Positions 23,734 to 31,433 of a stretch of DNA of 55,721 bases are shown here, one piece after another. The position numbers were made by a program, and so were the translations under genes. Positions within the stretch are counted from its first letter, which is position 1. The number at the start of each line of letters is the position of its first letter. Below the pieces are notes generated by a model, which saw nothing but the letters and a program-made list of their open reading frames with translations, ran no database searches and had not been told where the DNA came from. Origin of the DNA: Deltaproteobacteria bacterium (GTDB lineage: Bacteria; JAMCPX01); NCBI GenBank assembly GCA_023382265.1, contig JAMCPX010000034.1, forward strand, positions 1 through 55,721, in the 5' to 3' direction.

Positions 23734-23811
23734 TTTAACTAAAATAGTGCATTGAAAAACAGATAAATCTGCCCTGAAGCAAAGATGAGGCAGTTCTTTA
23801 TTCTCTTTAGG

Positions 23812-23831
23812 TTCCAAAGTAAAGTTTGGAA
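23812..23831. terminator. hairpin between rpmB operon and msrB remnant
   Basis: A 7-bp inverted repeat (TTCCAAA / TTTGGAA, 6-base loop) with flanking T-rich sequence lies between convergent units. It could end the rpmB transcript, although the following T-run is poor. A weaker CTGCC/GGCAG pair lies just before it (about 23770-23793). Confidence 0.35.
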
Positions 23832-23837
23832 TTGTGT

Positions 23838-24110
23838 TTATTTTCTCTCGAATAGTTTCTTGTATTGTCCGTAGCCTTCCTTATCGAGTTTTTCCTTTGA
23901 AATGAATCTGATTAAGGCAGAGTTTATGCAATAACGCAATCCCATGGGTTTAGGCATATCATCAAAAATATGCCTAAGATGCGAACCGGCACTTAATAAC
24001 AGCTCACTATATACAATATCCTTATATATACCTTCTCTGTAGTTGTTCCAGCATGCATTGTCAAAAGGCCTTTCTGTACCGCGTTCTTGAGTACTTCGAA
24101 AACATGATGA
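23838..24110 (-). pseudogene. msrB: msrB remnant with internal deletion
   Basis: The minus strand reads as MsrB (methionine-R-sulfoxide reductase) pieces in a single frame. First comes [20 protein letters not shown] leading to [14 protein letters not shown], then directly [20 protein letters not shown], the catalytic RYCINSA context and a normal C-terminus KKLFERK. About 45 residues between GEPLF-like and DSHLGH-like blocks, including the GWPSF motif, are missing at about 23990. There is no start codon: the frame opens after a stop at 24111. The remnant lies 60 bases from the island edge. Confidence 0.8.
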
Positions 24111-24170
24111 TTACCCTATATGATTAAATATCCGCGGCCAAACACTTAGAATACTGTTTCATCGTTAGAA

Positions 24171-24222
24171 AAAAACAAGATAGCGGGGGAAGGATTTGAA
24201 CCTTCGACCTTCGGGTTATGGG
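24171..24222. repeat. attachment site, displaced tRNA 3' half (left)
   Basis: This 52-base segment is identical to 31350-31401. It covers the tRNA from the anticodon loop to the 3' end, plus 10 bases past the discriminator, and then diverges at 24223. It has no 5' half and cannot make a tRNA. Confidence 0.9.
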
Positions 24223-24419: not shown

Positions 24420-24989
24420 CTATTTGTCAATGCCGAGAATTAAGACTGGTATATCTATGTTAGAAATGCCACGCTTTTGAAGATCCCACAGAAATTGTTC
24501 AAAGTAAGAAACACCGCTCGACATCTCATTTGCAAAATTTTTGACGGGAACTATTTCTATACCAACATCAATATATCCGAGATTATGAAAAATAGTCATT
24601 TTGGCTGCCACGTTGTAAACCATAAAAGCGTATTTGCCAAACTGAACTTCTACTCCGAGCCTTTCCTTCAAGAAGTCCATTTCTCTAAAAGCACCAGCGT
24701 GCAATTTTGATGGGTTGTAGCCATCAACATAGTATTCTGTTGGATACTCACACTGTACTCTTTTGGCTTCCCAATTATATTTTTTAAACTCTTTTTTGAA
24801 AGCTTTATTTAATCTCTTTGGACTATATAGTATTGTTCCACGCATGGTTTTTTCTTTACTTCGTTTAGTCTTATACTTACTTGCATCAACTGACATGATA
24901 ATTCTTTTAATTTCATTAAATAATTGTGAATATTGGCTATCAACAGCTTCTTTGCCATTATTGAATGAGTAAATACCGACAATTTTCAT
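24420..24989 (-). CDS. BstYI-like type II restriction endonuclease
   Basis: The 189-residue protein resembles BstYI of the BglII/BstYI family from memory: the opening KIVGIYSFNNG, the SKEKTxxGxILYSP block (residues 44-56) and the core VEVQFGKYAF. Catalytic residues D105, E114 and Q116 keep the D-x8-E-x-Q spacing. The C-terminal EMSSGVSYFEQ block is also BstYI-like. BstYI cuts RGATCY, so that is the likeliest specificity. The stop of the methyltransferase gene lies 4 bases upstream, so both are on one transcript, methylase first. Confidence 0.82.
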   Translation of the reverse strand: MKIVGIYSFNNGKEAVDSQYSQLFNEIKRIIMSVDASKYKTKRSKEKTMRGTILYSPKRLNKAFKKEFKKYNWEAKRVQCEYPTEYYVDGYNPSKLHAGAFREMDFLKERLGVEVQFGKYAFMVYNVAAKMTIFHNLGYIDVGIEIVPVKNFANEMSSGVSYFEQFLWDLQKRGISNIDIPVLILGIDK

Positions 24990-24993
24990 TATG

Positions 24994-25938
24994 TTACTTC
25001 TGATTATTTAGCCAACTGAGTGGGATTTGTGATACTTTTTCTTTTCCTGTTGGTTGATAAACAGGTTTGCCAAGTGGACGAATCTTTAAAGTACCATCAA
25101 AAAATTGTCCTATTCTTTCTCTGGCAATTTTAATATATTGTGGCTCTTTATCTACTCCCACAACCCTTCGTGAATTTTTAATACCAGCAATTAAAGAAGA
25201 GCCTACACCGCAATATGGGTCAAGTACCCAATCGGCCTCATTTGTAAGTGCAAGAATACACCTTTCAACAAGCTCTATAGGGAATTGGCAAGGGTGAATT
25301 GTTTTCTCTGGATGATTTGCTTTAACATTAGGAATCTCCCAAATTTCCTTGTCCCAATCTTCATTAATTATTCTCCATAAATCTGAAGGATTTTTACCTA
25401 ACGGATTCCCTGAGGGTAGCCCTATTTTATTACCTTTAAAATGTGTTTTACCCGGGTACTTTGATGGAATACGGACAGCATCTAAGTTAAATAAATAGTC
25501 GTCTGTTTTTGTAAACCAAAGAATCACTTCGTATCTACCTGAAAATCTTTTTGAAGCATGTAATCCATGTTCAAAATGCCAAATAATTCTATTCCGTAGT
25601 TTAAGGTTATGTTTTTTAAAGATATTATAATAAAAAATATCTAATGGAAATACCTCTACGTCCTTTACAAAATTTCCAACCTGCCAACAAAGGCTTCCTT
25701 TATTATTAAGAGTACGTATCAATTCATTTATGACTTCTTCTTGAGTTTCAAAATAGTTTTCCATGGCAGTTCGTTTCTCATATTCTTTACCCAAATTGTA
25801 AGGTGGAGAAGTTATAATTAATTGAAACCATTCATCGGGAAGGGTATGAAGAAATTTTAACGTGTCACCATCATGCAAAACAATTTCTGCATCCTTTGAA
25901 AAATTTGTATAAATGTCAGACGGTTTAAATATGTTCAT
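24994..25938 (-). CDS. DNA methyltransferase (beta class, likely N4-cytosine)
   Basis: The 314-residue enzyme has motif IV TSPPYNLG (about residues 43-50) before motif I DPYCGVGSS (about 243-251), the beta-class order. The TSPPY form is most often found in N4-cytosine methylases. The variable region between the motifs (about 150-225) should read the target site. It would protect host DNA from the adjacent BstYI-like enzyme. Its promoter must lie just above 25938 in AT-rich sequence. Confidence 0.88.
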   Translation of the reverse strand: MNIFKPSDIYTNFSKDAEIVLHDGDTLKFLHTLPDEWFQLIITSPPYNLGKEYEKRTAMENYFETQEEVINELIRTLNNKGSLCWQVGNFVKDVEVFPLDIFYYNIFKKHNLKLRNRIIWHFEHGLHASKRFSGRYEVILWFTKTDDYLFNLDAVRIPSKYPGKTHFKGNKIGLPSGNPLGKNPSDLWRIINEDWDKEIWEIPNVKANHPEKTIHPCQFPIELVERCILALTNEADWVLDPYCGVGSSLIAGIKNSRRVVGVDKEPQYIKIARERIGQFFDGTLKIRPLGKPVYQPTGKEKVSQIPLSWLNNQK

Positions 25939-26209: not shown

Positions 26210-26733
26210 TTATTGCTCAATATCATAGCAGACCTTTTATCTTATAACTCAATAATAATGGATCGAATAATGGTGTTATCGAATATCGTAATTGCATTAT
26301 AGAATAGAATTCCATGTAAGGAATATTCGATATTTACGTATCGGGTATCGATGAGATACCAAAGGACTGACCGGAAGATACTGGTGGACTACTGATTCAT
26401 CAATTGATGATATTGTAAGTATTTGATATTTCGTATAGCAGAATGTGTAACTTATTGTTTTTCCGTAGGCAGGTAGACGCCGGATAACATGGAGCGTATA
26501 CTGTAAGCTACAAAAGCATAACACTTCATCGTAAATGAATCGAACAATATCATAGAATATAGCAAGTGAATCAGAGAACATCCGATACAAATCGATTTAA
26601 GATCGGTATTTCGGTGTGAGCTACGGAACGTAAATCGATTAAAGACCGGTTATTCGGATTTAATTTCTATGTAAGGAATGTTTGAAATCGTTTTGCTATA
26701 TGAATGCATCGGCATAAGTAGACGGATACTATT
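26210..26733. repeat. gene-free tract with diverged repeats
   Basis: I see no credible gene in these 524 bases. Two diverged 26-base direct repeats begin AAATCGATT (26589-26614 and 26633-26658, 22 of 26 identical). Two 24-base near-copies contain ATGTAAGGAAT (26310-26333 and 26665-26688). TATCGA/TCGATA-type words recur throughout. It could be an origin with iteron-like repeats, a structured RNA or decayed DNA; sequence reading cannot decide. Confidence 0.45.
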
Positions 26734-27957
26734 TTAGGGATGATAGTAACCTGATTTAGTCATCAAGTCTAATTCTTTTTTAAATTCCTGTGCGGATTCA
26801 ATTTTAACATAGTATTTAGTTTTTATTGTGCCTTGCCTATATAATAGATCGAGCTTCCATTCTCTAAATGCATTATGAAACAAAATAAAATATTTATTGA
26901 TAGTGTTGTCAGATACGCTCTGAAGAAATATTTTATTATAATTTTTTCTAACAGGTTTTTTTCTTTCATTTTTAAACTTATCAAATTGCTTTCTTATAGT
27001 ATTTTCTGTAATGGAATAGCCACTCATTTTACTAAAATGTGTCACTATTGCTATTAAGAGGTCTAACCATTTATTTATCTTGTCTGTACAATATTGGACG
27101 GCATACGTATATAAACTACCTGCGAAGTATTCTATATTTAAAGGCAAGCTTTGATTGTTTTTTATGCGTTCTTTTTCTTTGTCTATTTTTTTTACCCATC
27201 GTGTTAAGGTGCATAAGGTAAAGGGAGATTCATAAATTTCTACATATGGGATTAATCTATTTTCTAATATGTTTTGCAATGTCTTATGAGGGGTTGCTAT
27301 AGTATAATTTTTTCCCTTTGTTCCTTCTTGCTCAAAAGGTATCGGTTGTTTATTTATGAATTTTTCTACAACAAGGTTAGATATTGATAAGTGATCCGAT
27401 GAAGCTATCTTCAAAGTGCCGTCTGGTAGATGTAATGCTTTTGAGAGACCTTCTTTGATTGTCAAAGTATTCTCTATTTTTATATAAGGGTTTTCCTTTA
27501 CCCGCTCTTTTATTTTCTCTACTTCATAATATGCCTTAAAAGCATCTATTTTCTGTTTTATATCATCTTTAAATTTTGAATCCATATTTTTATCTGTCCA
27601 CTTATTAAACAAACATATAAATAAAAAGCCTGCATAATCTGCAAGATGTTTATAGTCTAAATCTGATTGCGTAGTTTTATGATTTGAATTTTGGGAAGTA
27701 TTTTTTTGAATTTGTAATTGCAGAAACGGCTGGCTTCCTACAAACGTACTAAGCCAGACTGCATAATTTGTGATCCGCTTATCGTTTGATATATTAGCGA
27801 TGTAATCCTGCCAGTTGATCGCCGGTTGTAAAGGATTGGGATAGGTCGGAGCTATTTTCTCAATAACCCTTTTATTCTCTTTAGAAAGCGAGGTCTCTAA
27901 CATCGTGTATGAAACCGTCTTTGCTTCACTCAATAAATGTAATTTACTTGTTTTCAT
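26734..27957 (-). CDS. unknown island protein, 407 residues
   Basis: I do not recognise this protein. It is lysine-rich and soluble, with no signal peptide or membrane span, and its helix-rich middle (about 130-160 and 255-275) is strongly charged. There is no Walker, nuclease or HTH motif I can point to. Its start region diverges from the excisionase-like HTH. It is preceded on its own strand by a 150-base region and followed by the repeat tract and a terminator. Island position suggests a replication, maintenance or defence role, but nothing in the sequence proves one. Confidence 0.7.
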   Translation of the reverse strand: MKTSKLHLLSEAKTVSYTMLETSLSKENKRVIEKIAPTYPNPLQPAINWQDYIANISNDKRITNYAVWLSTFVGSQPFLQLQIQKNTSQNSNHKTTQSDLDYKHLADYAGFLFICLFNKWTDKNMDSKFKDDIKQKIDAFKAYYEVEKIKERVKENPYIKIENTLTIKEGLSKALHLPDGTLKIASSDHLSISNLVVEKFINKQPIPFEQEGTKGKNYTIATPHKTLQNILENRLIPYVEIYESPFTLCTLTRWVKKIDKEKERIKNNQSLPLNIEYFAGSLYTYAVQYCTDKINKWLDLLIAIVTHFSKMSGYSITENTIRKQFDKFKNERKKPVRKNYNKIFLQSVSDNTINKYFILFHNAFREWKLDLLYRQGTIKTKYYVKIESAQEFKKELDLMTKSGYYHP

Positions 27958-28111
27958 GCAAAGTAACTGCCTTTTTTAAATACCCTATTTTTTGCCTATT
28001 TTCCCCGCAAACCAGCATGGACAAACATTTGAACATCTGCAAAGGTAGTTTACCACATTCCGATGAAATAGTGAATGGACTTAGATTATGGGTGAAAGGA
28101 GAATTAAAAAT

Positions 28112-28324
28112 ATGCTTATAGATATAAAAACAGCAGCATCGGAATTGGGCATAAAGACCGGAACTTTATATGGCTATTGTTCACGATCTCTCGTGCCCTA
28201 TGTCAAGGTCGGGCGGGTTATCCGCTTCGATTTAAATGAACTTGTGTCTTGGTTTAAAAACGGCTCATTTCAAAAGGCAAAAGATGAGGTTTTTAATAGA
28301 TCAAAATGTCATGAGCATCCCTAA
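28112..28324 (+). CDS. excisionase-like helix-turn-helix protein
   Basis: This 70-residue MerR/Xis-type DNA-binding protein has the HTH_17 pattern: IKTAASELGIKTGTLYGYC, then VPYVKVGRVIRFD and ELVSWF. I choose the ATG at 28112 because AAAGGAGA lies about 10 bases upstream. It is the first plus-strand gene of the island and the natural candidate for a recombination directionality factor for the integrase, or for a copy-control repressor. Confidence 0.75.
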   Translation: MLIDIKTAASELGIKTGTLYGYCSRSLVPYVKVGRVIRFDLNELVSWFKNGSFQKAKDEVFNRSKCHEHP

Positions 28325-28502: not shown

Positions 28503-29015
28503 ATGTCATATACGAAAATTTCTAACGACATTCTCCTGAACCTTAAAGAGCTTAGACTTACGCCCTACGATCTGACTGTTTACATGATTCTACGGCTTCA
28601 CGACTACGACAAAGGTTATTCATATCCATCGGTACGAACCATTGCAAAAATTACCGGATTATCACTTGGGGCTATCGTGAATTGCACCAAAAAATTACAA
28701 AACTCTGGGATTATATCTATAAAGAGAGAAAAAAATCATAATGTTTACACATTCCTCGACATTCGCAAGGAAAGTATGGATGCCTCAAAGCAGGAATACA
28801 ATAAACTTGATGTCGATGTAATTCCAAAGCAGTACCCAAAAATGGAAAACAGACTGTTAACATGCAGGGACAACCAAACTGGAGAAGAGTACGAAGGTTC
28901 AGAAAGCAATGGGATAGTGACCTTGACTCAATCCGAGCCGGTTTCTTCTCCAGACAAGAGGAATTTTTTAAGCCTTTCAGTCGTTAATTTGTTAATCCAT
29001 TTTTCAGAAATATAA
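28503..29015 (+). CDS. winged-helix DNA-binding protein
   Basis: The 170-residue protein has an N-terminal winged helix-turn-helix of the HTH_36 type seen in plasmid and phage replication proteins (YPSVRTIAKITGLSLGAIVN, about residues 41-60, then a KLQNSGII wing). The C-terminal half has low complexity and no known domain. An AAGGA site precedes the ATG. Initiation or regulation of element replication is possible; the sequence shows only DNA binding. Confidence 0.7.
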   Translation: MSYTKISNDILLNLKELRLTPYDLTVYMILRLHDYDKGYSYPSVRTIAKITGLSLGAIVNCTKKLQNSGIISIKREKNHNVYTFLDIRKESMDASKQEYNKLDVDVIPKQYPKMENRLLTCRDNQTGEEYEGSESNGIVTLTQSEPVSSPDKRNFLSLSVVNLLIHFSEI

Positions 29016-29042: not shown

Positions 29043-29201
29043 ATGGCAAAGTCTAAAGACTTAGTAGAAGTAACGGTAAAAATTCCAAAGGGTACTTACG
29101 GCAAACTGCTGGTAACTTCAGAAGATGAGGGCATACCGGTTGACGATCTGGTAACGGAAGCAGTCGAAGATCATCTTGAACCAGAGGAAAACCCTGAATG
29201 A
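29043..29201 (+). CDS. 52-residue ribbon-helix-helix-like protein
   Basis: This short gene has the best ribosome site of the island (GGAGGTGA at 29028-29035, 7 bases before ATG). The product has a beta-strand-like VEVTVKIPKGTYG followed by two short acidic helices (VDDLVTEAVEDHL), the pattern of ribbon-helix-helix proteins such as plasmid copy-control or antitoxin factors. Its stop overlaps the next start as ATGA. Confidence 0.65.
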   Translation: MAKSKDLVEVTVKIPKGTYGKLLVTSEDEGIPVDDLVTEAVEDHLEPEENPE

Positions 29202-29311
29202 AAGGGGTTAAATTTATGGGGTGGGCATTTATTGCCTGCCCCCTTCTTGTGATACGGGAGTTTTACAAAAGTAGGTATTTTGTAAAGCAAACAGGCATTT
29301 TTAAGAGGTAA
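29198..29311 (+). CDS. 37-residue membrane peptide
   Basis: The start overlaps the stop of the preceding gene (ATGA), implying coupled translation. The product is MKGVKFMGWAFIACPLLVIR followed by a basic tail, so one short membrane span. No family is recognised. A further 21-codon frame (29316-29381) runs into the recombinase start and is too short to judge. Confidence 0.4.
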   Translation: MKGVKFMGWAFIACPLLVIREFYKSRYFVKQTGIFKR

Positions 29312-29373
29312 AAGCATGAATTTGAACATGCTAAAAGACGTAAAATTTAACAAAAGGTATAGGAATTGTAAAC

Positions 29374-29964
29374 ATGAATAACCTGCCTGTTGTTCAAAAA
29401 CTTTCAATGGCACGGTATGAAAGCAAGGACATACCTGTCTACCTGTCCGCTCCAGAGGTCAACGCAATGCTGGAAGCCTGCAAGAATAATAAGCGGGATC
29501 ATTTGCTTATAAATGTTCTTTGGCAATCAGGGTGTCGGATCACGGAAGGCCTGAAGATAACACGCAATGATGTTGATCTATACAATTTATCTATTAAGGT
29601 TCTGACCGAAAAAAAGCGATCGAAAAAAGGAAAGCCTATTTACAGGGTGATCCCTATAACGGCAGAGCTATCAAACGAGCTTGCCAGTTACGCTTTAACA
29701 CAGAACATAACGGAAAGGTTTTTTGATATTACAAGGCAAAGGGCTTTCCAAATTATCAGGTCTATTGCACACAAAGCTGGTATCACAAAGCCCGTCCATC
29801 CGCACACATTAAGGCATAGTTTTGCCGTCAACTGCATAGGTCAAGGCGTACCTTTGCCGGTAGTAAAAGACCTTTTAGGACATTCAAGCGTACTTACAAC
29901 AATGGTGTATTTGCGGATCGTCCAGCTGGATACACGGCAGTTTTTATCAGGGATTAAGTTTTAA
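29374..29964 (+). CDS. short tyrosine recombinase
   Basis: The 196-residue protein is little more than a catalytic domain: R in GCRITEGL, H and R in HPHTLRHSF, GHSS, and the nucleophile Y in TTMVYLRI. The N-terminal core-binding domain of normal integrases is missing. Such compact recombinases act as resolvases or invertases on plasmids. It is distinct from the full integrase 300 bases downstream. The start lacks a strong ribosome site and may be coupled to the small ORFs upstream. Confidence 0.85.
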   Translation: MNNLPVVQKLSMARYESKDIPVYLSAPEVNAMLEACKNNKRDHLLINVLWQSGCRITEGLKITRNDVDLYNLSIKVLTEKKRSKKGKPIYRVIPITAELSNELASYALTQNITERFFDITRQRAFQIIRSIAHKAGITKPVHPHTLRHSFAVNCIGQGVPLPVVKDLLGHSSVLTTMVYLRIVQLDTRQFLSGIKF

Positions 29965-29965
29965 C

Positions 29966-30289
29966 ATGAAAAAACCGATCACGGACTACTTAAACACATA
30001 CCTTTATATAGGCTATTTTGTTACGCATAGGCACGTAGAAACGACGATCTTCCCGCTATTCATATCTGACTACCAGTCAAGTACCGGAAGGGCTTTTAAA
30101 GCCCCTAAACACATATTTTTGCATTCTAAGCAGAAAACAATAAACCGTATCACTACATCTAAACATATAAAAGAAGGTCTTAATTGTTGCAATTCCTATG
30201 TCGATAAAGTATATTTATCAGGGCGTAGGGTTGCCATATTTTTTACCGCCTTAAATACAAACAAAGGGGGTGAAAGACATTGTATTTAA
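29966..30289 (+). CDS. hypothetical island protein
   Basis: A 107-codon frame begins one base after the short recombinase and overlaps the integrase start by 10 bases. The product is basic with no recognised domain or clear ribosome site. Tight packing is the main support; coding status is uncertain. Confidence 0.4.
   Translation: MKKPITDYLNTYLYIGYFVTHRHVETTIFPLFISDYQSSTGRAFKAPKHIFLHSKQKTINRITTSKHIKEGLNCCNSYVDKVYLSGRRVAIFFTALNTNKGGERHCI

Positions 30290-31349: not shown

Positions 31350-31433
<84 letters not shown>

What the first reader, a model, noticed from the sequence alone, without database searches (positions are those of the whole stretch)
26734..27957. Unknown 407-residue island protein
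It is the largest island gene, stands alone between a restriction-modification pair and integration genes, and matches no family I know. In defence-rich islands such a gene is a candidate for a new anti-phage or maintenance function.
Basis: inference. Interest (0 to 1): 0.6.

Follow-up and report, generated by a model that had tools for sequence, protein, structure and literature searches.

The report
Swappable orphan gene in mobile island
The 407-residue gene is real and belongs to no known protein family; it sits as a one-gene cassette in an interchangeable slot of a small mobile DNA element, where sister elements carry quite different unknown proteins, so it is probably accessory cargo (perhaps phage defence), though its activity is not shown.

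Summary
The ORF 26734-27957 (-) is real. Its only detectable relative (51% identity, dN/dS about 0.22) lies in another genus of the same small phylum; no family, fold or wider homologue was found. The gene sits inside a 7.2-kb integrative element bounded by perfect 52-bp repeats (24171-24222 and 31350-31401) at tRNA-Met. Sister elements at tmRNA, tRNA-Cys and tRNA-Ser carry the same repeat motif and a small winged-helix gene. Beside it each has one large unknown protein, but a different, unrelated one. In the G003 element the homologue is cleanly swapped: conserved DNA stops 1 bp before its stop codon and resumes just before the next gene. The gene also keeps a private 20-bp upstream box. It is therefore a mobile one-gene cassette in a turnover slot, as in P4/P2 hotspots. 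I judge an anti-phage or inter-element competition protein most likely (about 0.45), and an exchangeable replication or maintenance factor next. It does not track the BglII-like restriction pair. It does co-occur with the repeat tract, which also accompanies unrelated slot proteins. Ordinary in kind, new as a family.

The parts
24171..24222 (.). attL-type copy of the 52-bp direct repeat
   Evidence: perfect repeat of 31350-31401
31350..31401 (.). attR-type copy, inside the 3' part of tRNA-Met
   Evidence: tRNA-Met 31360-31433 (-)
24420..24989 (-). BglII-like type II restriction endonuclease (cargo at the far end of the element)
   Evidence: PF09195 3.8e-23; PADLOC REase_II 2e-40
24994..25938 (-). 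N6/N4 DNA methyltransferase of the same R-M pair
   Evidence: PF01555 4.1e-48
26281..26694 (.). conserved non-coding repeat tract of the element family (ATGTAAGGAATATTCGATA at 26314 and a variant at 26669; AAATCGATT-AAGA-CGG units)
   Evidence: 85% identical over 26438-26694 to the sister element L015, 97% over 74 bp to L025, 79% over 52 bp to L014; no unusual RNA fold
26734..27957 (-). the 407-aa orphan protein: one-gene cassette in the swap slot
28033..28052 (-). upstream box TAAACTACCTTTGCAGATGT shared only with the G003 homologue (probable promoter or operator)
   Evidence: local alignment score 34, no shuffle of 2000 reached it
28088..28324 (+). HTH_17 (AlpA/excisionase-like) gene, divergent from the 407-aa gene
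   Evidence: PF12728 3.3e-7
28503..29015 (+). DnaD / phage-O-like replication protein (HTH_36)
   Evidence: PF13730 2.3e-11; PHROG O-like 7.3e-9
29043..29201 (+). small 52-aa ORF, resembles part of the 133-aa protein in L026 (by eye)
   Evidence: translation
29374..29964 (+). short XerA/XerD-like tyrosine recombinase, 84% identical in L015
30280..31326 (+). tyrosine integrase at tRNA-Met
   Evidence: PF00589 1.2e-38

Best explanation
The 407-aa gene is an accessory one-gene cassette in the turnover slot of a small, probably satellite-like integrative element at tRNA-Met. The slot lies between the element's HTH_17 gene and its repeat/winged-helix control region. SHOWN: the element's boundaries, the homologue under purifying selection, the replacement of this gene by unrelated genes in sister elements, and its own conserved upstream box. 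INFERRED: it is a soluble, mainly helical cytosolic protein expressed from its own promoter. It most likely protects the element's host against competing phages or related elements, as hotspot cargo of P4-like satellites and P2-like phages does. It probably acts as a stand-alone interference protein, since no partner gene travels with it. The target is unknown.
For: 52-bp att repeats and tRNA-Met. Sister element L015 is bounded by 31-bp repeats at tmRNA. Window and L015 share the short recombinase (84% aa), flanking DNA (80%) and the repeat tract (85%), but their slot proteins (407 and 365 aa) show no similarity by blastp or hhalign. L003 and L014 share the methyltransferase (74% aa) and winged-helix gene (77% aa), with nucleotide identity of 76-83% that ends at L003:1253 (404-aa stop codon at 1254) and resumes at 2601, while their slot proteins (404 and 341 aa) are unrelated. 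The G003 element is a different backbone (serine recombinase, tRNA-Ser) yet carries the 407 homologue. The upstream box is private to this gene pair. The far-end slot also varies: an R-M pair here, a GT87 glycosyltransferase in L015, both of kinds that can affect phage sensitivity. Precedent: P4/P2 hotspots of anti-phage systems, small loci with high turnover between conserved genes (PMC9122126).
Against: No defence domain or PADLOC match. No catalytic motif was recognised by eye. All the slot proteins examined are orphans, whereas known hotspots usually include some recognised systems. Only two members of this family are known, so co-occurrence statistics are impossible. A constant count of one large protein per slot would also fit an exchangeable core function.
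Confidence: 0.45

Rival explanations
1. It is an exchangeable core factor of the element (replication initiator, copy-control or excision/partition protein) that has been replaced by non-homologous analogues in sister elements.
For: In the elements compared (window, L003, L014, L015, L026), exactly one large protein sits in this place beside an origin-like repeat tract or winged-helix gene. The 365-aa and 662-aa slot proteins contain weak HTH-like stretches (BrkDBD 0.024; SpoIIID 0.026). The 407-aa protein is basic (63 K+R against 44 D+E) and its C-terminal model is helical.
Against: The repeat tract stays 85% identical between elements whose slot proteins are unrelated, so the slot protein is unlikely to be what recognises it. 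Replication-type genes are already present elsewhere in window and L015: a DnaD/O-like gene and an AAA_25 helicase-like gene. In L003 and L014 the slot protein is swapped while methyltransferase and winged helix stay. The G003 homologue is near charge-neutral (51 against 51).
Confidence: 0.3
2. It is a superinfection-immunity or regulatory protein (repressor-like) whose specificity differs between elements.
For: It is transcribed divergently from the HTH_17/replication genes, as repressors often are, and the upstream box lies in the divergent promoter region. The C-terminal helices could include an HTH-like turn.
Against: 407 aa is large for a repressor and no HTH profile hits it. The upstream box is kept in G003, where the divergent neighbour is a methyltransferase instead.
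Confidence: 0.13
3. It is part of a modification-dependent system with the neighbouring DNA methyltransferase genes (an unrecognised nuclease or specificity subunit).
For: Both known members lie close to an N6/N4 methyltransferase.
Against: The two methyltransferases are of different types. In the window the methyltransferase already has its BglII-like partner. L014 has the same methyltransferase as L003 (74%) without this protein. No nuclease profile hits it.
Confidence: 0.07

Closest known systems
Anti-phage hotspots of P4-like satellites and P2-like phages (Rousset et al. 2022, PMC9122126)
   Same: small integrative element, one locus of 1-5 kb between conserved genes with high turnover of unrelated, often unannotated genes; restriction systems among the cargo
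   Different: no P4 genes or helper were identified here; no cargo protein of this slot matches a known defence system; host is an unnamed, little-sampled bacterial phylum
Phage-inducible chromosomal islands and similar minimal satellites (PICI, PICMI)
   Same: integrase, AlpA/Xis-like HTH, replication-protein-like gene, 7-9 kb, insertion at tRNA or tmRNA (general features from own knowledge)
   Different: no packaging, capsid-remodelling or terminase gene seen in the ORFs examined; helper unknown
BglII-type type II restriction-modification
   Same: the neighbouring pair 24420-25938
   Different: the 407-aa protein is not part of it: its homologue lives without it

Membership tests
Integrative mobile element (tyrosine-integrase island) | integrase next to a tRNA with direct repeats at both ends | tested here: met
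   52-bp perfect repeats, tRNA-Met, integrase
P4/P2-type cargo hotspot (as a kind of locus) | unrelated genes exchanged between the same conserved flanks in sister elements | tested here: met
   window against L015, and L003 against L014
P4/P2-type cargo hotspot (as a kind of locus) | cargo gives phage resistance | not testable with these tools
   needs a phage challenge
Phage satellite (PICI/P4/PICMI) | recognisable packaging-interference, capsid-remodelling or terminase gene, or a known helper | tested here: not met
   none recognised among the window-island genes examined; a helper was not sought
Known anti-phage protein families (PADLOC-DB) | significant profile match | tested here: not met
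   best E 0.042, 11 bits
   no profile or PDB sequence hit; full-length model unusable (pLDDT 33); C-terminal model (pLDDT 64) has no significant Foldseek match

The most novel reading that the evidence does not exclude
The family of elements carries a dedicated slot that recruits stand-alone orphan proteins, each an unrecognised single-gene anti-phage or anti-element effector, the 407-aa family being the first one shown to move as a cassette between two different element backbones.
Probability: 0.3. Interest if true: 0.65.

Novelty: new member of a known kind. Interest (0 to 1): 0.42.

Why it matters
If it is defence cargo, this slot in a little-studied bacterial phylum is a small source of single-gene systems that no family library knows. 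The members found (407, 365, 341 and 662 aa) can be tested directly, because position, not sequence, marks them. If it is instead an exchangeable core factor, it would be a striking case of non-homologous replacement in an otherwise conserved element.

Tried and rejected
Profile searches (Pfam, NCBIfam, PHROGs, PADLOC), PDB sequence search by single sequence and profile, tblastn in phages and plasmids, and pattern scans of IMG/VR gave no relative. One GTDB scan gave only the G003 contig, JAJYLN010000031.1. AlphaFold2 of the full protein with two sequences failed (pLDDT 33). The C-terminal 139 residues gave a helical model (pLDDT 64, pTM 0.63) without significant fold match; weak hits such as the ColE2 Rep DNA-binding domain at E 5.8 were discarded. 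A structured RNA in the repeat tract was rejected (z -0.8 and -1.2; Rfam only the tRNA). Common descent of the slot proteins followed by fast divergence was rejected: neighbouring genes are 74-84% identical while slot proteins show none, and the 407 family evolves at dN/dS about 0.22. A remnant of the winged-helix gene in the window was sought and not found. An empty tRNA-Met site in relatives was sought through rpmB (L28) synteny, but the three relatives examined have no tRNA there.

Full report
OBSERVATION. The ORF at 26734-27957 (-) is as described: 407 codons, ATG start, uninterrupted. It is the largest ORF of the island. It has no match in Pfam, NCBIfam, PHROGs, PADLOC (best 11 bits, E 0.042) or the PDB by sequence. 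It is not quite alone: between it and the two recombinases lie an HTH_17 gene, a DnaD/O-like gene and a small 52-aa ORF.

THE ISLAND. Two perfect 52-bp direct repeats, 24171-24222 and 31350-31401, bound the island. The right copy lies in tRNA-Met 31360-31433 (-), next to a tyrosine integrase. The element is thus about 7.2 kb. Order: repeat, BglII-like R-M pair, repeat tract, 407-aa gene, HTH_17, DnaD/O-like, small ORF, short recombinase, integrase, tRNA.

RELATIVES OF THE PROTEIN. Among nine genomes held for the phylum, one other (G003, another genus) has a homologue: 51% identity over nearly the full length. A sample of 386 genomes over the domain gave no others. A pattern scan of GTDB species genomes found only the same G003 contig (JAJYLN010000031.1). 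Phage, plasmid and IMG/VR searches found none. These searches are not equally sensitive; distant relatives could be missed. Codon comparison gives dN 0.38, dS 1.71 (near saturation), so the protein is under purifying selection. The hydrophobicity scan gives no obvious transmembrane segment; the window protein is basic, its homologue near neutral.

SISTER ELEMENTS. Following the repeat motif ATGTAAGGAATATTCGATA (26314; variant at 26669) through the genome led to further elements. L014 (G000:C61) has a tyrosine integrase beside tRNA-Cys, a methyltransferase, HTH_17, a 341-aa unknown, a winged-helix gene and repeats. L015 (G000:C68) lies between 31-bp repeats, one at the tmRNA 3' end, and has an integrase, the same short recombinase, an AAA_25 helicase-like gene, HTH_17, a 365-aa unknown, the winged-helix gene, repeats and a GT87 glycosyltransferase. 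L003 (G003) has a serine recombinase at tRNA-Ser, a methyltransferase, the 404-aa homologue, the winged-helix gene and three 104-bp tandem repeats carrying the same motif. L026 (G002:C48) has an integrase next to tRNA-Cys, an AAA-type protein, a 662-aa unknown and a degenerate winged-helix gene.

THE SWAP SLOT. Window and L015 are 80% identical over 29184-30120 and 85% over 26438-26694, but the block between is replaced: 407 aa here, 365 aa there, with no similarity. L003 and L014 are conserved over the winged-helix gene and its leader up to L003:1253, one base from the stop codon of the 404-aa gene, and again from L003:2601 through the methyltransferase. Between these, each has its own unrelated slot protein; L014 also has HTH_17 and further small ORFs there. 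Neighbours at 74-84% protein identity beside slot proteins with none mean replacement, not divergence. The same 407 family appears in two different backbones. Upstream of both members, and nowhere else in the compared loci at this match quality, lies TAAACTAC(C)TTTGCAGATGT about 75-95 bases before the start codon (score 34; 0 of 2000 shuffles reach it). So the gene appears to move with its own upstream region, as a cassette.

STRUCTURE. The full-length two-sequence model is unusable (pLDDT 33). The C-terminal 139 residues model as a helical domain with a 39-residue first helix (pLDDT 64, pTM 0.63), with no significant match to PDB or viral predictions. This neither supports nor excludes DNA binding.

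INTERPRETATION. The place, turnover and mosaic spread are those of accessory cargo. The published parallel is the P4/P2 hotspot, small high-turnover loci rich in anti-phage systems (PMC9122126). The far end of these elements also carries variable cargo of kinds that can affect phage sensitivity (R-M here, GT87 in L015; the effect is an inference). Defence or inter-element competition is therefore the leading explanation, at about 0.45. The chief rival is an exchangeable core factor. It is weakened because the repeat tract is conserved across unrelated slot proteins and replication-type genes lie elsewhere in window and L015. It is kept alive by the constant presence of one large protein per slot and by weak HTH-like stretches in two of them.

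Co-occurrence with the BglII-like pair: no (absent from the G003 contig examined, which begins inside the element, so its far end is not seen). Co-occurrence with the repeat tract: yes for both members, but the tract belongs to the element family and also accompanies other slot proteins. A confident match to a replication or transposition protein, the stated refutation, was not found.

Noticed in passing
window 26281-26694; L015 6760-7222; L025 8564-8637; L014 9330-9740; L003 595-923: A non-coding repeat tract shared by the element family, 74 bp of it 97% identical between genera, usually placed upstream of a conserved 75-99-aa winged-helix gene; probably its operator array or an origin.
   Followed up: partly
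L015 7826-8439 and L025 8928-9542: 94% nucleotide identity of a GT87 glycosyltransferase segment between two genera, a sign of recent transfer of these elements.
   Followed up: partly
window 23800-24130 (-): A stretch that reads as part of methionine sulfoxide reductase B without a recognised full gene, just outside the left repeat; recognised by eye only.
   Followed up: no
L014 9921-11975: 684-aa protein with an NgoFVII-type PLD nuclease N-terminus (PF09565), divergent from the repeat tract and followed by type I R-M-like genes.
   Followed up: no
L026 977-2965: 662-aa orphan slot protein with a weak C-terminal HTH-like stretch, next to an AAA-type protein; no plasmid match.
   Followed up: partly
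L003 84-368: Fragment of an IS200/REP-associated Y1 transposase near the tandem repeats of the G003 element.
   Followed up: no
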